A DNA stretch of 64,000 nucleotides from Halomonas sp. M20 (GTDB taxonomy: Bacteria; Pseudomonadota; Gammaproteobacteria; Pseudomonadales; Halomonadaceae), in contig NZ_JACNMQ010000002.1 of the NCBI RefSeq assembly GCF_020622265.1, positions 310,001 through 374,000 of the forward strand. The letters run 5' to 3'. The notes below the pieces were generated by a model. That model did not search any database. It saw only the letters and a program-made list of their open reading frames with translations, and was not told the DNA's origin. This document shows positions 43,401 through 49,792 of this stretch, in pieces. How positions within the stretch are numbered: position 1 is the first letter of the stretch; each line of letters starts with the position of its first letter. Both the position numbers and the translations under genes were made by a program.

Positions 43401-44280
43401 CGTGAATCCGAACGAAGCACCACTTTTACCCGAACCAGCCACGCCGCTTGAAGCCACCGCCTTCGAGGTGCTCACGGAACCACGCGATAGCGCCTCTCCC
43501 AACCAGCCCGCGCCATCGTTGCACCGTTTCCCGAGGGGCCCCGGTCCCGGCACCTTCCTGCACGGCTTGCTGGAATGGGTCGGCCAGCAAGGCTTTGCCA
43601 GCGTGCTCGACCATCCGGCAGCACTGGAAGATACCCTGGCGCGGCGCTGCAATCTGCGCGGCTGGACTCAATGGATCCCCGTGCTGCAGGCATGGATCAC
43701 GGCGCTTCTAAGCACACCGCTGCCCTTGCCCGAGGCAATGCCATCCGCCGCGGTGTGCCTGGATGGGCTCACGGTCTATCAAGTTGAATTGGAGTTCTGG
43801 TTCGCCGCCCATCAGGTCGAGGCTCAGCGGCTTGACGATCTGGTCTGTCGATATACCCTGGGCAACACGCCACGCCCCCGCGCCGACCGCGACCGCATCA
43901 ACGGCATGCTCAAGGGCTTCATCGATCTGGTATTCGAGTTCGAGGGGCGCTATTACGTCGCCGACTGGAAATCCAATCATCTCGGACCGGATGACGACGC
44001 CTACACCCCCGAGGCCATGCGTTTGGCAGTGGCGGAAAAGCGCTACGACCTGCAATACGCCCTTTATCTGCTGGCATTGCATCGTCTGCTCAAGTCGCGA
44101 CTGCCGGACTACAACTATGACCGCCATATCGGCGGCTCACTGACCGTTTTCCTGCGCGGTGCGAATGCTGAAAGCCGTGGCGTGCATGCCGAACGCCCAC
44201 CTCGGGAACTGATCGAAGGGCTGGACGCGCTGTTCCAAGGCGTCGATGCTGCCAGCCCCGCCACGGAGGCCGCCTCATGA
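40450..44280 (+). CDS. recB: exodeoxyribonuclease V subunit beta (RecB)
   Basis: 3'-5' helicase and the only nuclease of RecBCD. 1276 residues, some 95 more than E. coli. SF1 motifs: ASAGTGKTFTIALLYVRL (Walker A, about residues 33-50), VVTFTNAATEELRDRI (Ia, about 74-89), VAMVDEFQDTDPVQYRIF (II, about 406-423), LIGDPKQAIYAFRGADIYTY (III), ITIHKSKGLEYPLVFLPF (V), and LYVALTRARHATWLG (VI). The nuclease domain holds LKGFIDLVFEFEGRYYVADWKSNHLG, with the Asp and Lys of the active site. Insertions are present: a 24-bp tandem repeat (residues about 572-587) and a Pro/Ala-rich linker (about 955-1035). ATGA overlaps join it to recC and recD. Confidence 0.95.
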   Translation: MSTAQHNDSVAQPVELDPLVFPLHGTRLIEASAGTGKTFTIALLYVRLVLGPRSESDDVAFSRPLTPPEILVVTFTNAATEELRDRIRRRLVEAAEVFLQPRENAPGDDLLLQLRDDYPEASWPACARRLQLAAEWMDEAAVSTIHSWCYRMLREHAFDSGSLFSLNLETDQTEIENEVVRDYWRCFYYPMRLDELAIVTRYWESPDALHGQVQRLLSECSALNRDVPPPEETLQQTQSAIDARLEELKAPWPQWVDELQALFDEGQKAKAFNGSKLRKPNRDSWLQKIHAWAIGDQTWPDLDKKATVWHRLTPAGIVDAWKEAPPAHPAFEAFASLPEELDALPDPRADLLTHAVHWCRSRLDREQERRAEMGPNELLTHLDRALAGANCEALGAQIRRQFPVAMVDEFQDTDPVQYRIFDCVYRIKQNRPDTGLFLIGDPKQAIYAFRGADIYTYLQARQATEGRHVTLGTNFRSAESMVEAVNRVFDFAEAHPPGTFLFKQDDGTNPVPFQEVRAKGRKDAFALDGQPLPAMTLWQLDADEPLSKSAYHAEMAERCASAMVELLEQGQCGRAGFMNSGRAGFVDSSGSLDPVSPSDMAVLVNGLGEARAIRQALARRGVKSVYLSDKDKVFASPMAGQLEAWLRACADPDDDRVLRTALAMPALGLDIAALDALNENELAWEDRVMQFRDYHRLWQTQGVLPLVRRLMNDFAVPTRLLAGGPASEGERWLTDLLHLGELLQQASQELDGEHALIRFLAESRANPDDQSDTHKLRLESDADLVQVITIHKSKGLEYPLVFLPFICSHRPQKKSDSPLRWHDEQGRLRISLEADDATLGIADRERLGEDLRKLYVALTRARHATWLGMAPLKDGENSAIGQLLANGKRLDPYAFAEALATLKGDCEAITLAPAPPIESRTIVLTEHDAALGEAMTPVRSAREHWWIASYSALSFSGEALAPVLDPASGAISDSTFGMATESPIVNPNEAPLLPEPATPLEATAFEVLTEPRDSASPNQPAPSLHRFPRGPGPGTFLHGLLEWVGQQGFASVLDHPAALEDTLARRCNLRGWTQWIPVLQAWITALLSTPLPLPEAMPSAAVCLDGLTVYQVELEFWFAAHQVEAQRLDDLVCRYTLGNTPRPRADRDRINGMLKGFIDLVFEFEGRYYVADWKSNHLGPDDDAYTPEAMRLAVAEKRYDLQYALYLLALHRLLKSRLPDYNYDRHIGGSLTVFLRGANAESRGVHAERPPRELIEGLDALFQGVDAASPATEAAS
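42164..42211 (+). repeat. 24-bp tandem repeat inside recB
   Basis: GCGGCCGCGCCGGGTTT occurs at 42164-42180 and 42188-42204, each followed by seven variable bases, two 24-bp units in frame. They encode CGRAGFMN-S-GRAGFVDS-like octapeptides in a loop of RecB between helicase motifs. This is an in-frame expansion of a surface loop, by slippage or duplication. Confidence 0.75.
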
Positions 44281-46547
44281 GGGATCTATTCTCGGATCTG
44301 GAAGACGACGCCCGCGAGGCTACCCAGGACGACACGTTGGGCACTTTCGGTGACGCTTTAGGCAGTATCGATACGCTGCTTGCTCTGCTTGAACGCTGGG
44401 TGAAGCGCGGCTGGCTGCGCGCCCTGGACCGGGCGCTGGTGGTCTTCCTGCATCGCGAGGTGCCCGATGCCCCGCCGCTGTTACTGCTCGCCGCTGCCTT
44501 GGCCAGCCATCAGCTTGGCCGGGGGCATGTATGTCTCGATCTGGGCATGACGTTGAAAGCCCCTGACCTGGCGCTTTCACTACCCCCGGAAGGCGATGAC
44601 TTGAGCGACCCGCCGCCGCTGCCCAGCCAGGTGCTGGCAAATGTGACACTCGATGATTGGCGAGCCGCCCTGGAATACCCGGTGTTGGTCGGCGATGGCC
44701 TCGGCAACACGCCGCTGGTGAAATCCGAGACCGGCGACAATACCCGCCTGTATCTGCGCCGCTATTGGCAGTACGAGCAGGATATTCGTCATGTCCTCGC
44801 CGACCGCCTTGCCAGCACGAATATCGACGCACCCGCCATCGAACCATTGCGCCATGCGCTCGAGGCATTGTTCGGCGGTTCTAATGATATTCAGAATGAC
44901 ATTCCGAATGACAACCCGGCATCCCTCGACTGGCAGAAACTCGCCTGCGCTCTTGCCGCCCGTTCGCGTTTCGCGGTGATCACCGGCGGCCCCGGCACCG
45001 GCAAAACCACCACCGTGGTCAAGCTGCTTGCCTTACTTCAGGCGCTACAGCTGGGTCAAAGCGAGAACCAGGGTGAGAACAAGAGCGGCGAACGAGCGCT
45101 GCGTATTCGCCTCGCCGCCCCCACCGGCAAGGCCGCCGCGCGCCTGAATGAATCCATCGCCAAACAGGTCGAAAATCTCTCGCTGATCGAACTGGCTGGC
45201 ATCGCCGGCGATAAAGGTAATGGCATCGACCTCACCACCCTGCGCGAGGCCATTCCTACGGAAGTCACCACGCTCCATCGGCTGCTCGGATCACGCCCGG
45301 ATACCCGGCATTTTCGCCACAATGCGGACAACCGCCTGGCGCTGGACGTGCTGGTAATCGATGAAGCCTCCATGGTGGATATCGAAATGATGGCTAGCCT
45401 GCTCGCTGCCCTGCCGCCCCGCGCCCGATTGATCCTGCTGGGTGACAAGGACCAGCTCGCCTCGGTGGAAGCCGGCGCCGTACTTGGTGACCTGTGCCAG
45501 CGCGCGGAAGGCGCCCACTACACACCGGCGATCGCCGCCCAGTTAAATGATGCCACCGGCAACACGCTGCCCGAGCGCTATATCGACGCCGATGGCCAAC
45601 CGCTCGATCAGGCTATTGCCATGCTGCGGGTAAGCCACCGTTTTGATGCCGCCAGCGGCATCGGCCAGCTCGCCCAGGCAGTGAACGCGCCCCTTGGCAA
45701 CAACCTGCAACCCAAGGACAAGCGCCGCGCCGTGCGTCAGATATTTGATCAAGGCTATGCGGATATCAGCCGACTGAAACTGAACGATAGCGACGACCCG
45801 GCACTGGACAGGCTCGTGATCGACGGCAACCCGGTAGGCTTCCGCAATGAGGGGCGCGGGCGCCGATCTCGCGATGGCGAACTGCCACAACCCACCGGCT
45901 ACCGACATTATCTTGAGGTGCTCAAACAACAGCGCCCACCCGCAAATGCTGACTTGGAAAACGACCGCGATGTTTTTGATAACTGGGCCCGCGCCGTCCT
46001 CGACGCCCACGGCCGCTTCCAAGTGCTATGCGCCCTGCGCAAAGGCTCCTGGGGCGTGGAAGGTTTGAATCAGCGCATCGCCAGCGCCCTCAAACGCCAC
46101 AAGCTGATTCCTTTCGATTACGGCTGGTACCCCGGCCGGCCGGTGCTCGTCACCCGTAACGACTACAGCCTCGGTCTGATGAACGGCGATATCGGCATCA
46201 CCCTCGCCATGCCCAACGCCCGGGAGCCCGAAAAACCCTGGCTGCCCCGGGTCGCCTTTCCCAGCAACGACGGCAGCGGTCGCATCAAATGGGTACTCCC
46301 TAGCCGCCTGCAAGCGGTAGAAACCGTATTCGCCATGACCGTGCACAAATCCCAGGGTTCGGAATTCACCCACACCGCCCTGGTACTGCCGGACGCGCCC
46401 AACCCGATACTGACGAGGGAATTGGTTTACACGGGGATCACCCGCGCCAAGAACTGGTTTACATTAGTGGAAAGCGGACGCGGGATATTGGATGAAGCGG
46501 TGCTGCGAGAAGTGACGCGGGTGAGTGGGTTGGGAGTTATTGAATGA
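44277..46547 (+). CDS. recD: exodeoxyribonuclease V subunit alpha (RecD)
   Basis: 5'-3' helicase of RecBCD. 756 residues, about 150 longer than E. coli RecD. Helicase motifs: FAVITGGPGTGKTTTVVKLLALL (Walker A, about residues 232-254), RLAAPTGKAAARLNESI (Ia, about 278-294), LVIDEASMVDIEMMA (II, about 358-372), ILLGDKDQLASVEAGAVLGD (III, about 385-404) and VHKSQGSEFTHTALVLP (about 688-704), ending in TRELVYTGITRAKNWFTLVES. Extra length comes from loops, e.g. residues 200-217 encoded by a 12-bp tandem repeat and an insertion SENQGENKSGER around 260. The ATG overlaps the recB stop. The cassette region begins 80 bp after its stop. Confidence 0.95.
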   Translation: MRDLFSDLEDDAREATQDDTLGTFGDALGSIDTLLALLERWVKRGWLRALDRALVVFLHREVPDAPPLLLLAAALASHQLGRGHVCLDLGMTLKAPDLALSLPPEGDDLSDPPPLPSQVLANVTLDDWRAALEYPVLVGDGLGNTPLVKSETGDNTRLYLRRYWQYEQDIRHVLADRLASTNIDAPAIEPLRHALEALFGGSNDIQNDIPNDNPASLDWQKLACALAARSRFAVITGGPGTGKTTTVVKLLALLQALQLGQSENQGENKSGERALRIRLAAPTGKAAARLNESIAKQVENLSLIELAGIAGDKGNGIDLTTLREAIPTEVTTLHRLLGSRPDTRHFRHNADNRLALDVLVIDEASMVDIEMMASLLAALPPRARLILLGDKDQLASVEAGAVLGDLCQRAEGAHYTPAIAAQLNDATGNTLPERYIDADGQPLDQAIAMLRVSHRFDAASGIGQLAQAVNAPLGNNLQPKDKRRAVRQIFDQGYADISRLKLNDSDDPALDRLVIDGNPVGFRNEGRGRRSRDGELPQPTGYRHYLEVLKQQRPPANADLENDRDVFDNWARAVLDAHGRFQVLCALRKGSWGVEGLNQRIASALKRHKLIPFDYGWYPGRPVLVTRNDYSLGLMNGDIGITLAMPNAREPEKPWLPRVAFPSNDGSGRIKWVLPSRLQAVETVFAMTVHKSQGSEFTHTALVLPDAPNPILTRELVYTGITRAKNWFTLVESGRGILDEAVLREVTRVSGLGVIE
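44883..44918 (+). repeat. 12-bp tandem repeat inside recD
   Basis: Three units starting AATGA at 44883, 44895 and 44907 (12 bp each) encode NDIQ-NDIP-NDNP, in frame. The unit sequences differ at a few bases. The repeat lengthens a loop before the helicase core. Confidence 0.7.
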
Positions 46548-46693
46548 CTGGTAACGACCCAAAGCGGCTATGGCGGCAAAGGCAGCAAGCATGTTCATTG
46601 AGGATATGCAGCATGCACGATGATTGGTGTTATGTAGCCGAGCTATACGTAATTCTTTATATTTCAGTTCCTTAGGAGCTCTGCGTGCGAGCG

Positions 46694-46763
46694 GCATAAC
46701 ATTCTTGAACACGCGTGCTCGTTCAGGTCAATAAACGAGCGCGCTGTCTAATACCTGTTAAAC
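46694..46763 (+). other. attC-like site 0 (end of the ORF-less cassette)
   Basis: Box GCATAAC at 46694-46700 and box GTTAAAC at 46757-46763 bound 70 bp that fold into an imperfect hairpin: the stem ACACGCGTGCTCGTT around 46709-46723 pairs with AACGAGCGCGCTGT around 46733-46746, with a bulged base. The outer AAC/GTT pair and the inner stem are clear, the middle is less so. An 11-bp direct repeat CCTTAGGAGCT (46669 and 46764) flanks it. Less certain than the other two sites. Confidence 0.6.
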
Positions 46764-46784: not shown

Positions 46785-48092
46785 ATGTACAACCTTTTAG
46801 TTACTGCAAAACGAGGTGCTTGGGACCAGCCTTTCTATGAGTTCGATAAAAGTCGCTTTCTGGAATATACAACAGAGTCAGTTGCGGAGGCCTTTAAGTC
46901 TCTTAGCCCTAACCTTATAGACATTTTGAAGGGGTATCCTTGCATATTTGCATATGAAGGTGAAGACCAAGATCTGCGTATCGGAAAACTTACGTCAATT
47001 AAAGAAAGGGGAAGAAAACTGCTCATAGAATTTGAGCTTGATCAGAACATACCCCCAATACCTTTTGCTGACATTGAGCCAATAGGGCCACTTCTTGATA
47101 TACGTAATTGGGAGATAAACAGGACACACTGGGCGGTTAAGGATGAAGATCTTTTTGAGCGTCTTGTAACTGCTGAATTGCTAAATAAAGAGCAAATACA
47201 GGGGGCAGAAAAGCAAGAGAAACCGCCAACTAAAAGTTCGACATCCCCGAAAGTGGCGTCTGTAAAAGGCTTCATTGGGAAAGTACTTTCTTCTGAAAGA
47301 GAAAGTGGTTCAGAATTTTTTTACAGAGGTCATTCAAATAAAAATAAGTATAAGCTAGAGCCATCTTTATCTAGGAAAGATGATGATGGCAATTATCTTT
47401 ATTTAGAAAATGAGCATATATTATACAGAGAACTTTTAGTATCAAATTCGGCGGATTTTCAATCTGATGAATATACCTTAGATAAGCTGGTTCGAATGCA
47501 ACATTATTCGTTGCCAACTAGACTATTGGATATTACCTCAAACCCACTAATCGCCCTGTATTTTGCATGCAAGTCGGCTCCTAACGAAGATGGTGAGGTG
47601 ATTGTTTTTTCTATGCCAAGGAAGGAAGTTAAGTATTTTGATTCAGATGTTGCTAGTTGTATAGCCAATTTAGTCAGGCTGCCAAAAGAGGAAAAAGACA
47701 AAATTAGCTTTGAGATAGAAAATTTTAATGGTCAAACTCCCATAAAAAGATTAATTCATTTTATAAGAGAAGAAAAGCCATACTTCGAACCTAAGATAAT
47801 GCCCGATGACTTGAGAAAAATTATCTGTGTGAAAGGGAAGCAAAGCAATGATCGAATATCCTCTCAATCTGGTGCATTTCTACTATACGGGCTTGATGCC
47901 GTTATGGACGAAGAAGGAACTCCCGAAATAACTGTCACTCGTATTACCGTCGACAATAAGGAAAAAATACTAAAAGAGCTTGATCTTCTTAATATCAATG
48001 AAAGTACAGTATTTCCATATATTGAGAACTCTGCTAGGTATGTTGCTGATAAATATAAATTTAACAAAGCATTGCAGCGGACAAGCCGCTGA
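46785..48092 (+). CDS. FRG-domain protein (cassette gene)
   Basis: 435 residues, AT-rich. Residues 1-130 form a novel N-terminal domain of alternating strand and helix (MYNLLVTAKRGAWDQPFYEF and IGKLTSIKERGRKLLIEFEL). After a polar linker (about 140-158) comes the FRG domain: EFFYRGHSN (Arg181-Gly182), LEPSLSR, and LVRMQHYSLPTRLLDITSNP (about 236-254), then LIALYFACK, and SSQSGAFLLYG late. FRG proteins are often seen in accessory or defence-linked loci; an ADP-ribosyltransferase-like activity has been suggested for the fold but is not proven. The stop codon lies inside the attC site, so the tail KALQRTSR is attC-encoded. Shine-Dalgarno AGGAG is 13 bases before the ATG. Confidence 0.8.
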   Translation: MYNLLVTAKRGAWDQPFYEFDKSRFLEYTTESVAEAFKSLSPNLIDILKGYPCIFAYEGEDQDLRIGKLTSIKERGRKLLIEFELDQNIPPIPFADIEPIGPLLDIRNWEINRTHWAVKDEDLFERLVTAELLNKEQIQGAEKQEKPPTKSSTSPKVASVKGFIGKVLSSERESGSEFFYRGHSNKNKYKLEPSLSRKDDDGNYLYLENEHILYRELLVSNSADFQSDEYTLDKLVRMQHYSLPTRLLDITSNPLIALYFACKSAPNEDGEVIVFSMPRKEVKYFDSDVASCIANLVRLPKEEKDKISFEIENFNGQTPIKRLIHFIREEKPYFEPKIMPDDLRKIICVKGKQSNDRISSQSGAFLLYGLDAVMDEEGTPEITVTRITVDNKEKILKELDLLNINESTVFPYIENSARYVADKYKFNKALQRTSR

Positions 48093-48106
48093 ATGCGGCG
48101 TTAGTG
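48059..48106 (+). other. attC site 1
   Basis: 48 bp from ATTTAAC (48059-48065, a full RYYYAAC box) to GTTAGTG (48100-48106). The arms AACAAAGCATTGCAGCGG and CCGCTGAATGCGGCGTT pair around ACAAG, leaving AAA/GGC unpaired beside the outer boxes and one extruded G in the left arm. These are the unpaired spacer and extrahelical base that integron integrases recognise in attC. It shares 38 of 42 core positions with site 2. Confidence 0.85.
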
Positions 48107-48135
48107 ATCGTCGCATGAATAGGGAGTTTTAGTTA

Positions 48136-48777
48136 ATGCTAGGCCTTAGTGATTTAGAGGACAATGGTGTTGCTATAATTGATGACATTCATTCTCGTGC
48201 TGAAGTAATCAACTTGGCAAAGTCCGTTGGAGTAATAAGGCCACACCCTAACGGTGAGGATATATCCACATTAAAATCTAGCGATGGGAAAAACTCCCTT
48301 CCTGGAACATTAAGTAATATTTATGGTTTGTCAGCATTTCCTTTTCATACCGACACTGCTTTTTGGGGAGTTCCTGCTAGGTATGTAGTAATGGGAATGT
48401 TCAGAAAGAGCCAGTGCACTACTAACTATATTTCATTTTGTGATATTGCTGGAGTTATTTCTAGCGATTTTCGTAGCATGGCAGAAAAATCGATTTACCT
48501 AGTTGAAACCTTTGAAGGATGTAAATATACATCACCAATTTTTTGTAGAAATGGGGTTTTAGGGTTTCGATTCGATCCAAATGTCATGAAGCCAGCAAAT
48601 GGTCATGCCAAAAAGCTTCATGGTGAGTTGTTGGCGGCTATGGGCGCTATCGAGCCGAAAAAGATTCACTGGAATGGAAACAAAGCTGTTGTTTTTGATA
48701 ATTGGAAAAATTTACATAGCCGATCCGCAGTGAAGAATGAGCGGCGTGAGTTATTTAGAATTTATTTGGAGGGGTAA
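48136..48777 (+). CDS. TauD/TfdA-like Fe(II)/2-oxoglutarate dioxygenase (cassette gene)
   Basis: 213 residues. The iron site is His71-Asp73 (FHTDTAFW, HxD) and His194 (NLHSRS), with Arg208 in the last strand (LFRIYLEG) suited to bind the 2-oxoglutarate carboxylate, 14 residues after the distal His as in TauD. It fits oxygenases of the TauD superfamily that hydroxylate small molecules or amino-acid side chains. The gene is AT-rich, follows attC site 1, and GGGAG precedes its ATG at 48136. The next gene starts directly after its stop codon. Substrate unknown; no amino-acid or siderophore biosynthetic genes are nearby. Confidence 0.8.
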   Translation: MLGLSDLEDNGVAIIDDIHSRAEVINLAKSVGVIRPHPNGEDISTLKSSDGKNSLPGTLSNIYGLSAFPFHTDTAFWGVPARYVVMGMFRKSQCTTNYISFCDIAGVISSDFRSMAEKSIYLVETFEGCKYTSPIFCRNGVLGFRFDPNVMKPANGHAKKLHGELLAAMGAIEPKKIHWNGNKAVVFDNWKNLHSRSAVKNERRELFRIYLEG

Positions 48778-49731
48778 ATGAGCTGGGATAAAGACTCGCT
48801 ATGGGCAAAGTCAAAATTATATTTTGAGCGTTCATTTGAAGTAGATAGAACGGATGACGTTTTTGGGTTGTGGTGTGCCATGGGTTTGGAGTTGTTGTCA
48901 CGGTCAACGGTGGCTCATTTTAGCCCCGTGCTTTTGGCCGAGCCCGACAAGGATCAGCGCCATGTTCTATCAGTCCTAGGGCTAGCATCATCGACATCTC
49001 AGCGCAAGTCAATAGCCACAAGCCAAGTACTTCGCCTTTGCAAAGAATTGATCCCGCAGTTCACAGATGACGAACTTTCCATTGCATTAGCTCTAGCAGG
49101 AAGGAGAAATGAAGAACTGCATTCCGGTACGGCGGCATTTGTAGAATATAAACATCAAAAGTGGATTGGCGGGTTCTATAAATGCTGCAAAGTCCTGACT
49201 GAAGCTCAGGGTGAGAGCTTAACCAGCTTGCTAGGTGAAGACGAGGCACAAACGGCAGAGAAGATAATTGAAGAAGTTAAAAGTGAAGTGACAAGTAAAG
49301 TCAGAAGTAAAATTTCTGCTTTTGCAAAGGTCTTTGGTGAAAAAGATCCTAATGAACAGGCTAGACTAAAACAGGAATCGGAAGCTCAAGGTAAAGCACT
49401 TAGCCATCAACAGCATCATAGAGTCGAATGCCCTGCTTGTAGTTGTGTAGCAACAGTTCAAGGAGATACATACGGGCGTGAGCAAATTGAGAACACAGAA
49501 GATGAAGTAATTGTCAGACAGTCTGTTATCCCAACAAAATTCTCATGCAAAGCATGCGGCCTAAATTTAAATGGATACCGCGAGTTAATGGCTGCAAATG
49601 TTGCCGACCATTTCACCCATCGGGTGCACTATACACCAGAAGAGTTTTATGAACTTGTGGACCCGAACGACAGAGAGACTATGGATTCATATGCTGAAGA
49701 TCATGGTTACTTTCATTTCAGCAATGACTAG
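48778..49731 (+). CDS. zinc-ribbon protein of unknown function (cassette gene)
   Basis: 317 residues, AT-rich. No recognised family. Residues 1-150 are helical and look like a four-helix or HEPN-like arrangement (e.g. LWCAMGLELLSRSTVAHF, RRNEELHSG near 110-118). Residues about 155-210 form a charged, likely coiled-coil segment (TAEKIIEEVKSEVTSKVRSK, KQESEAQGKALSHQQHH). A zinc ribbon follows: Cys218 and Cys221 (ECPACSC) and Cys257 and Cys260 (SCKACGL) with a 35-residue insert. The C-terminus is acidic. The start codon follows the dioxygenase stop with no gap, so the two are coupled and share one cassette. The RxxxxH word RRNEELH hints at, but does not prove, a HEPN nuclease motif (RxxxxH form). 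Confidence 0.7.
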   Translation: MSWDKDSLWAKSKLYFERSFEVDRTDDVFGLWCAMGLELLSRSTVAHFSPVLLAEPDKDQRHVLSVLGLASSTSQRKSIATSQVLRLCKELIPQFTDDELSIALALAGRRNEELHSGTAAFVEYKHQKWIGGFYKCCKVLTEAQGESLTSLLGEDEAQTAEKIIEEVKSEVTSKVRSKISAFAKVFGEKDPNEQARLKQESEAQGKALSHQQHHRVECPACSCVATVQGDTYGREQIENTEDEVIVRQSVIPTKFSCKACGLNLNGYRELMAANVADHFTHRVHYTPEEFYELVDPNDRETMDSYAEDHGYFHFSND

Positions 49732-49744
49732 GAATGAAACTAGG

Positions 49745-49792
49745 TACTAACAAAGCATTGCAACGGACAAACCGGTGAACGCGGCGTTATAT
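49745..49792 (+). other. attC site 2
   Basis: 48 bp from TACTAAC (49745-49751) to GTTATAT (49786-49792). Left arm AACAAAGCATTGCAACGG and right arm CCGGTGAACGCGGCGTT pair around ACAAA with two mismatches and the same extruded G as site 1. It closes the two-gene cassette. Any cassette that followed is missing or truncated, since no matching 3' box (ATATAAC-like) is found downstream. Confidence 0.83.

What the first reader, a model, noticed from the sequence alone, without database searches (positions are those of the whole stretch)
48136..49731. Coupled TauD-like dioxygenase and zinc-ribbon protein: candidate undescribed system
Two genes fill one cassette with no gap between stop and start. One has the full HxD...H...R site of Fe(II)/2-oxoglutarate oxygenases; the other combines a helical N-terminal part with an RxxxxH word (RRNEELH), a coiled coil and a C4 zinc ribbon. 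Cassettes usually carry one gene, so a kept pair suggests joint function. A role in defence or in modifying a nucleotide, tRNA or peptide is possible. The combination is not one I recognise.
Basis: inference. Interest (0 to 1): 0.8.

Follow-up and report, generated by a model that had tools for sequence, protein, structure and literature searches.

The report
Oxygenase paired with tail-bearing HEPN RNase
A small mobile two-gene unit, found side by side in very different bacteria and often among anti-virus genes, joins an oxygen-using modifying enzyme to a likely RNA-cutting protein whose extreme tail looks like the enzyme's target.

Summary
Gene A (213 aa) is an Fe(II)/2-oxoglutarate oxygenase of the clavaminate-synthase/TauD fold. 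Gene B (317 aa) is a HEPN domain with RNxxxH and Ex3[KR], helices, a C4 zinc ribbon and an acidic, poorly ordered tail. The pair is one integron cassette. A directly precedes B in 56 of 59 genome loci, and all 46 plasmid records matching A also match B. Neighbouring genes are rich in defence models (342 and 289 PADLOC families for 106 and 98 neighbours; 42 for 100 control genes). Unexpectedly, 54 of 54 aligned B proteins end in Asn-Asp/Glu. A lineage whose A lost the predicted 2OG-binding arginine ends in Gln-Asp-Glu (3 of 3). Of B homologues lacking A, 13 of 13 full-length ones examined lack the motif; two A-less B fragments keep it. Best reading: A hydroxylates or engages B's C-terminal Asn, gating an RNase used in defence or as a toxin, like HepT/MntA with other chemistry. 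Function is inferred; nothing was assayed. No description was found in the papers and libraries searched.

The parts
48100..49789 (+). integron gene cassette holding both genes
   Evidence: attC-like repeats at both ends; homology to L020 starts and stops at the attC ends
48062..48103 (+). attC-like site of the preceding (FRG-protein) cassette; left boundary
   Evidence: 42-nt repeat, 90% identical to the right site; bottom strand folds, z -2.7 and -3.0 in two cut-outs
48136..48777 (+). gene A: Fe(II)/2OG oxygenase, TauD / clavaminate-synthase-like, 213 aa
   Evidence: Pfam TauD 1.3e-9; model pLDDT 93.4; Foldseek to KDO1, clavaminate synthase, AsnO, E about 1e-12
48346..48354 (+). H71-T-D73 of A, predicted iron ligands
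   Evidence: H and D 53 of 53
48715..48759 (+). H194 (iron), R204 (predicted 2OG arginine) and R208 of A
   Evidence: 53 of 53 each; profile aligned to clavaminate synthase; R204 replaced by G in the Q-tail lineage
48778..49731 (+). gene B: HEPN domain + helical linker + C4 zinc ribbon + acidic tail, 317 aa
   Evidence: model pLDDT 88.5; best VIA rows are HEPN-type chains, Z 11.7 to 6.7 over 16 rows
48889..48903 (+). E38-x3-R42 of B, HEPN Ex3[KR] element in helix 2
   Evidence: E 54 of 54; R 48 and K 6 of 54
49105..49122 (+). R110-N-E-E-L-H115 of B, HEPN Rx4H RNase motif
   Evidence: R, N, H 54 of 54; at the end of helix 97-116
49429..49557 (+). C4 zinc ribbon of B (C218, C221, C257, C260)
   Evidence: 54 of 54 each; beta region in the model
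49723..49728 (+). N316-D317, C-terminal Asn-Asp of B: proposed target or docking site of A
   Evidence: N[DE] within the last 5 residues in 54 of 54; lowest-confidence block of the model; absent in 13 of 13 full-length solo B examined
49748..49789 (+). attC-like site of this cassette; right boundary
   Evidence: fold weak, z -0.9, 36 of 200 shuffles fold as well; a 93% match (44 nt) lies at C8:464953-464996, near an integrase gene at C8:466243

Best explanation
The pair is a mobile two-gene conflict module. SHOWN by sequence: A and B are inherited together, A first and usually overlapping B by 4 nt; A has a complete 2OG-oxygenase active site; B has the HEPN RNase signature, a C4 ribbon and a conserved, poorly ordered acidic C-terminus ending in Asn-Asp/Glu. 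INFERRED: B is a metal-independent RNase toxin/effector whose ribbon and linker recognise RNA or a partner. A is its dedicated regulator and hydroxylates (or at least engages) the C-terminal Asn, so that B's activity depends on A and therefore on O2, Fe(II) and 2-oxoglutarate. Most likely the modified form is held inactive, and phage infection or stress releases active B, stopping translation and phage growth (abortive infection); the direction of the switch is the least certain step. It works like HepT/MntA, where an upstream-encoded enzyme modifies and silences a HEPN toxin, but with oxygenase chemistry on a C-terminal tail.
For: Coupling: 56 of 59 genome loci; all 46 plasmid records with A also have B (19 of the 46 are near-identical pAt plasmids); A profile rings once in 28 of 29 genomes; distance correlation 0.956, n=53, best of 999 permutations 0.26; 33 of 53 pairs overlap by exactly 4 nt with the start codons my script chose. 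HEPN: motifs and helix positions agree with PMC3710099. Oxygenase. Tail: 54 of 54; full-length solo B 0 of 13; the one Streptomyces plasmid pair read (L083) keeps YGND; the Q-tail lineage 3 of 3 has G in place of A's R204. A has five invariant arginines and B's last 14 residues carry net charge -2 to -8. Defence neighbourhood. Precedent for an upstream enzyme modifying a HEPN toxin: PMC7641770 (passages).
Against: No activity, toxicity, modification or phage protection was measured. Tail type and A type change on only two branches of the tree, so the association rests on two evolutionary events, although kept over great divergence. Two A-less B fragments (L077, L078) still end in N[DE]; they may be remnants of pairs. 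The tail motif is partly a matter of composition: shuffling the last 25 residues gives it in 11%. Foldseek alone gave no PDB match for B under E 0.001; the HEPN call rests on VIA and motifs, and Z under about 13 can be common for helical bundles. One paired B (L085) has QNAELH, without the motif arginine. Five of ten neighbours tested singly had no PADLOC match.
Confidence: 0.5

Rival explanations
1. A is a binding antitoxin or assembly partner: B's tail docks in A's substrate cleft and the complex masks B; hydroxylation itself is not what matters.
For: Tail co-varies with A; the lineage lacking the predicted 2OG arginine still keeps the pair and a conserved tail, YQDE, in 3 of 3.
Against: The iron ligands and both arginines are invariant in 53 of 53 A proteins, more than a pure binder would need.
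Confidence: 0.2
2. A modifies an RNA (tRNA or other) or a nucleotide, and B cuts RNA that lacks or carries the mark: a restriction-modification logic at the RNA level.
For: HEPN nucleases such as PrrC and RloC are RNases (PMC3710099, passages); the B zinc ribbon could bind nucleic acid (inference).
Against: The listed relatives of A by profile and fold are mostly amino-acid and small-molecule oxygenases; this does not explain the tail pattern.
Confidence: 0.12
3. A makes a small hydroxylated metabolite that switches B on or off, a signal-and-effector pair.
For: Clavaminate synthase, AsnO, KDO1 and GBB hydroxylase relatives act on free small molecules (recalled).
Against: No export or biosynthesis gene stood out among the neighbour clusters shared by two or more loci (clusters were only partly annotated); the tail stays unexplained.
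Confidence: 0.1
4. The pair is not defence but a cassette- or plasmid-borne addiction or stress-dormancy module; its place among defence genes is hitch-hiking on mobile elements.
For: Found on plasmids, in an integron array and near integrases and transposases; HEPN integron cassettes were proposed to serve stress dormancy (PMC3710099, passages).
Against: More defence models near the scanned copies than in stretches of the same contigs at least 40 kb away.
Confidence: 0.25

Closest known systems
HepT/MntA (HEPN/MNT) toxin-antitoxin, type VII as proposed in PMC7641770
   Same: Two-gene unit, modifying-enzyme gene upstream, HEPN toxin with Rx4H; HepT chains are among the best structural matches to B.
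   Different: The partner is an Fe/2OG oxygenase, not a nucleotidyltransferase; B has no Tyr two residues after the His (G in 53 of 54); B carries a C4 ribbon and a conserved C-terminal tail.
AbiV and other two-component HEPN abortive-infection RNases
   Same: HEPN fold match (9bj6, Z 5.6, rmsd 3.7, 129 aligned; titled an RNase of a two-component antiphage system); defence context.
   Different: No oxygenase partner is known to me (recalled); AbiV is reported typically to lack the H of the Rx4-6H motif (PMC3710099, passages).
Clavaminate synthase, AsnO, L-lysine hydroxylase KDO1, GBB hydroxylase (TauD-fold 2OG oxygenases)
   Same: Same fold and active-site layout as A.
   Different: A is 100 or more residues shorter than these, forms its own subfamily and occurs with B; its substrate is proposed to be B's tail rather than a free metabolite.
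FIH, the asparaginyl hydroxylase of HIF (recalled)
   Same: Idea of an oxygen-dependent hydroxylation of an Asn in a disordered C-terminal region that switches an effector.
   Different: Eukaryotic JmjC-type enzyme acting on transcription factors; no homology tested.

Membership tests
HEPN superfamily (features from PMC3710099) | Rx4-6H motif at the end of helix 3, polar residue after R | tested here: met
   R110, N111, H115 in 54 of 54 aligned B; motif ends helix 97-116. Outside the alignment one paired B (L085) has Q for R
HEPN superfamily (features from PMC3710099) | Acidic residue in helix 2 as Ex3[KR] | tested here: met
   E38 54 of 54; position 42 R 48, K 6; helix 27-48
HEPN superfamily (features from PMC3710099) | HEPN helical fold | tested here: met
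   Best VIA row 2hsb Z 11.7, rmsd 3.3, 122 aligned, residues 1-150; rows 1-16 HEPN-type by title, by PMC3710099 (1wwp, 1ylm) or by recall (1ufb, 1wty, 1jog). Foldseek alone weak
HEPN superfamily (features from PMC3710099) | RNase activity | not testable with these tools
   needs an assay
HepT/MntA toxin-antitoxin | RX4HXY with the AMP-accepting Tyr in the HEPN protein | tested here: not met
   residue two after H115 is G in 53 of 54, A in 1
HepT/MntA toxin-antitoxin | Partner is an MNT nucleotidyltransferase | tested here: not met
   A matches only TauD in Pfam and oxygenase folds
Type VII toxin-antitoxin in the wide sense (enzyme modifies toxin) | Antitoxin chemically modifies and neutralises the toxin | not testable with these tools
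   tail pattern is indirect support
Fe(II)/2OG oxygenase, TauD / clavaminate-synthase group | HxD/E...H iron triad and 2OG-binding arginine on a double-stranded beta-helix (definition recalled) | tested here: met
   53 of 53 for H71, D73, H194, R204, R208; Foldseek E about 1e-12; alignment to clavaminate synthase
Integron gene cassette | attC sites bounding a mobile unit | tested here: met
Complete integron at this site | Integrase gene next to the array | tested here: not met
   nearest gene over cut-off on the contig is about 107 kb away; so an array apart from its integrase
Known defence system in PADLOC-DB 2.0.0 | Match of A or B to a model | tested here: not met
   0 families for each up to E 5

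The most novel reading that the evidence does not exclude
A is a dedicated protein-asparaginyl hydroxylase for its operon partner, making B a hydroxylation-gated RNase: a bacterial immune or toxin switch that reads oxygen, iron and 2-oxoglutarate through Asn oxidation at an RNase's C-terminus, with lineages that changed the chemistry (Q tail, arginine lost) or that have neither the enzyme nor the tail motif.
Probability: 0.35. Interest if true: 0.95.

Novelty: new variant of a known kind. Interest (0 to 1): 0.82.

Why it matters
A two-gene unit kept together across several phyla, on plasmids and in an integron, with no matching model in the libraries searched, is a strong candidate for an undescribed defence or toxin system. 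If A modifies B's tail it would add 2OG-oxygenase chemistry to the ways bacteria control toxic RNases and tie abortive infection to oxygen, iron and central metabolism. The prediction is sharp: one invariant Asn at the extreme C-terminus.

Tried and rejected
Pfam, NCBIfam and PADLOC gave no family for B above cut-off; sub-threshold names (FnI_RECK, ZNF512, ResT, IS66, a selenoprotein ribbon) were judged chance. A sequence search of solved structures found nothing credible for B. No A or B match at E 1e-3 was found in the annotated phage records, and no similar DNA in E. coli genomes; two viral-collection contigs carry the pair (L079, L080). The downstream 679-aa HATPase gene recurs in only 7 loci, all alphaproteobacterial by title, so it was not taken as a core part. 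TrlF + A + B + GIY-YIG is seen on A. vitis and Paracoccus plasmids and was also judged optional. I first took the A. tumefaciens pAt copy of A for a degraded gene, since it is unannotated and has a shorter open frame. Two relatives with longer A frames and the same changes made me read it as a distinct lineage. The 81%-identical B on an Acaryochloris MAG contig (L022) may be a mis-binned fragment and carries no weight. Paper searches joining oxygenase or TauD terms with HEPN, antitoxin or defence terms gave no relevant paper among those listed: one search listed 1, one search listed 3, searches found 0, one search listed 12 of 444 with no TauD in any of the 12. Only open-licence full texts were searched and no supplements were read, so a description elsewhere is possible.

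Full report
WHAT IS THERE. The window holds two attC-like repeats. Between them lie gene A (48136-48777) and gene B (48778-49731), stop codon next to start codon. The preceding cassette carries an FRG-domain protein of PADLOC candidate PDC-S15. That the pair moves as one cassette is shown by Halomonas sp. 328 (L020): an 88% match over window 48099-49789 that begins and ends at the attC ends, with no other DNA match to that locus but 24 nt. In the window's genus 1 of 14 genomes has B, the window's own. In a class-wide sample 2 of 369 have it, one being the window's own. In two samples around other loci, 8 of 297 (4 of them already known holders) and 6 of 397 (1 already known) have it. It is a sporadic accessory element. 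The site lies beside a RecD-like gene (44277-46547, my reading); in relatives its two flanks lie at other distances, about 1 kb apart in G370 and 8-9 kb in G372 and G373.

THE PAIR IS REAL AND OLD. A scan of the 84,980-species genome collection with two peptide patterns from a six-protein B alignment gave 59 loci; this is a lower bound and favours B proteins with either pattern. In 56 of 59 a match to the A profile lies directly upstream on the same strand. The exceptions are L022 (contig end inside B) and two partial B fragments, L077 and L078; in L024 A is in two pieces and in L065 B is. By record title most loci are Pseudomonadota; single loci or pairs of loci come from Acidobacteriota, Verrucomicrobiota, Gemmatimonadota, Bacillota (Paenibacillus) and a delta-proteobacterium, mostly MAGs (phylum names recalled). 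In 72,556 plasmid records, 46 match A and 49 match B at E 1e-3. Comparing the full lists, all 46 with A are among the 49 with B, next to it by the coordinates. Of the 46, 19 are near-identical pAt plasmids. The three B-only records are Streptomyces. In 29 genomes holding the pair the A profile (E up to 1e-6) hits once in 28 and twice in one, the second hit far weaker, so A is a subfamily of its own. Distances in A and B correlate at 0.956 (n=53; best of 999 permutations 0.26), and 33 of 53 pairs overlap by exactly 4 nt with the starts my script chose.

WHAT A IS. Pfam TauD. The model (pLDDT 93.4) matches L-lysine hydroxylase KDO1, clavaminate synthase, AsnO and GBB hydroxylase at 12-16% identity, as does the sequence profile. 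Twelve residues are invariant in 53 of 53, among them H71, D73, H194 and five arginines. The profile alignment to clavaminate synthase puts R204 and R208 on two of its arginines; that the first binds 2OG and the second the substrate carboxylate is recalled from the literature on these enzymes. Two plasmid A proteins (L084, L086) have HxE instead of HxD.

WHAT B IS. The model (pLDDT 88.5) has a helical N-terminal half, more helices to residue 209, a beta ribbon with the four cysteines, and a weakly predicted end (mean 54 in the last block). Among the chains that VIA re-aligned, rows 1-16 are HEPN-type structures covering about residues 1-150: by title, by PMC3710099 (1wwp, 1ylm) or by recall (1ufb, 1wty, 1jog). 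Csm6, Cas13bt3 and AbiV follow, with AadA between them. Foldseek by itself is weak. The three sequence features given for HEPN in PMC3710099 (passages read) are present: Rx4H at the end of helix 3, a polar residue after R, and Ex3[KR] in helix 2. The terms dioxygenase, oxygenase, 2OG and hydroxylase occur 0 times in that paper's main text.

THE TAIL. Lengths and sequences between the ribbon and the C-terminus vary, yet 54 of 54 aligned B proteins have Asn followed by Asp or Glu within the last five residues; shuffling the last 25 residues gives this in 11%. The last 14 residues are always acidic (net -2 to -8). The paired B proteins outside the alignment that I looked at agree (L011-L015, L017, L019, L032, L065, L083-L086; L118, L119; L122, L125, L127; L132-L135), with one exception group. 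In these three, 40-71% identical to each other in B, A has GWLWR where the others have the first arginine of the pair, so R204 is G. Two searches with A-less Streptomyces B proteins matched 37 and 29 plasmid records, 4 of the 37 being P. aeruginosa plasmids with the pair. I read 13 A-less copies in all, with no A match in the fetched stretch (about 2.5-4 kb each side); they keep an RNxxxH motif and two CxxC, and 0 of 13 have the N[DE] end. The one paired Streptomyces plasmid copy I read (L083) ends YGND and has A. Against the pattern, the partial B genes L077 and L078 have no A nearby but keep N[DE] ends; they may be remnants of pairs. In a midpoint-rooted tree of 79 B proteins built without the last 20 residues, the three kinds form three clades (63 N, 3 Q, 13 solo; support 0.74-1.0). 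The association therefore reflects two changes, not many; its weight comes from being kept over deep divergence.

NEIGHBOURHOOD. Of 13 plasmid stretches with the pair that I read, 9 have a toxin-antitoxin or defence-type neighbour by my reading: BrnTA, AbiV, AbiH and VapBC, an ATP-dependent endonuclease plus UvrD, VapBC, an MkoA-like helicase, TrlF and UvrD with an AAA ATPase. Four have none that I recognise. Nearest neighbours of 54 scanned loci (genome and viral contigs; 7 fragments or near-duplicates dropped) match 342 PADLOC families (106 proteins) and second neighbours 289 (98 proteins), against 42 for 100 proteins from 20 control stretches at least 40 kb away on the same contigs. Family counts are inflated by redundant models and are not counts of proteins; a few neighbour loci are close relatives (two near-identical Gabija-type loci). 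Of ten neighbours tested singly, five had PADLOC matches, among them MkoA, a partial LmuB and PDC-S18, and five had none. Transposases and integrases are also present, so mobile-element hitch-hiking is a live rival.

MECHANISM. The closest precedent is HepT/MntA, where an upstream enzyme adds AMPs to a HEPN toxin and silences it (passages of PMC7641770). Here the partner is an oxygenase from a fold group that includes an asparagine oxygenase, and the HEPN protein carries an invariant C-terminal Asn that is missing in the full-length A-less copies read and changed where the oxygenase's predicted 2OG arginine is changed. I therefore commit to: A modifies, or at least engages, B's tail and so controls an RNase used in defence or as a toxin (0.5 for the whole statement; about 0.97 that the pair is a real unit, 0.85 that B is a HEPN RNase, 0.7 for a conflict role, all judgement). 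Whether modification switches B off or on is not settled; off is favoured by analogy, while the survival of A-less B genes speaks against a simple obligatory antitoxin.

KNOWN OR NOT. PADLOC 2.0.0, Pfam and NCBIfam hold no model above cut-off for B, and the paper searches found no description. Later defence catalogues, preprints and supplements were not searched.

Noticed in passing
window 46785-48092: Preceding cassette encodes a 435-aa FRG-domain protein matching PADLOC candidate PDC-S15 at E 5e-106: two defence-candidate cassettes in a row.
   Followed up: partly
window 46555-46760: A stretch between the RecD-like gene and the array recurs in many places in same-genus genomes, the 65-nt part 46696-46760 most often; attC-like or another repeated element.
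   Followed up: no
own genome C7:1055309, C11:271339, C8:466243: Three integron-integrase matches over the family cut-off in one genome; a 93% copy of this cassette's attC lies near the one at C8:466 kb.
   Followed up: no
L040, L044, L046, L047, L048, L051, L057, just downstream of B: A 665-694-aa protein family follows B in seven alphaproteobacterial loci; the copy tested (L047) is HATPase_c_3 with no PADLOC match: possible optional third gene.
   Followed up: partly
L084 1322-6448, L086 2304-7448: Four-gene run TrlF-like AAA ATPase, A, B, GIY-YIG nuclease on Paracoccus and A. vitis plasmids; TrlF also follows the pair in a P. aeruginosa plasmid (L017).
   Followed up: partly
L081, L082, L107-L117: A-less B homologues (HEPN with RNGxxH plus two CxxC) on Streptomyces plasmids form a separate clade.
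   Followed up: partly
L022 51-626: A MAG contig labelled Acaryochloris carries a B 81% identical to the window's; possible mis-binning or recent transfer.
   Followed up: no
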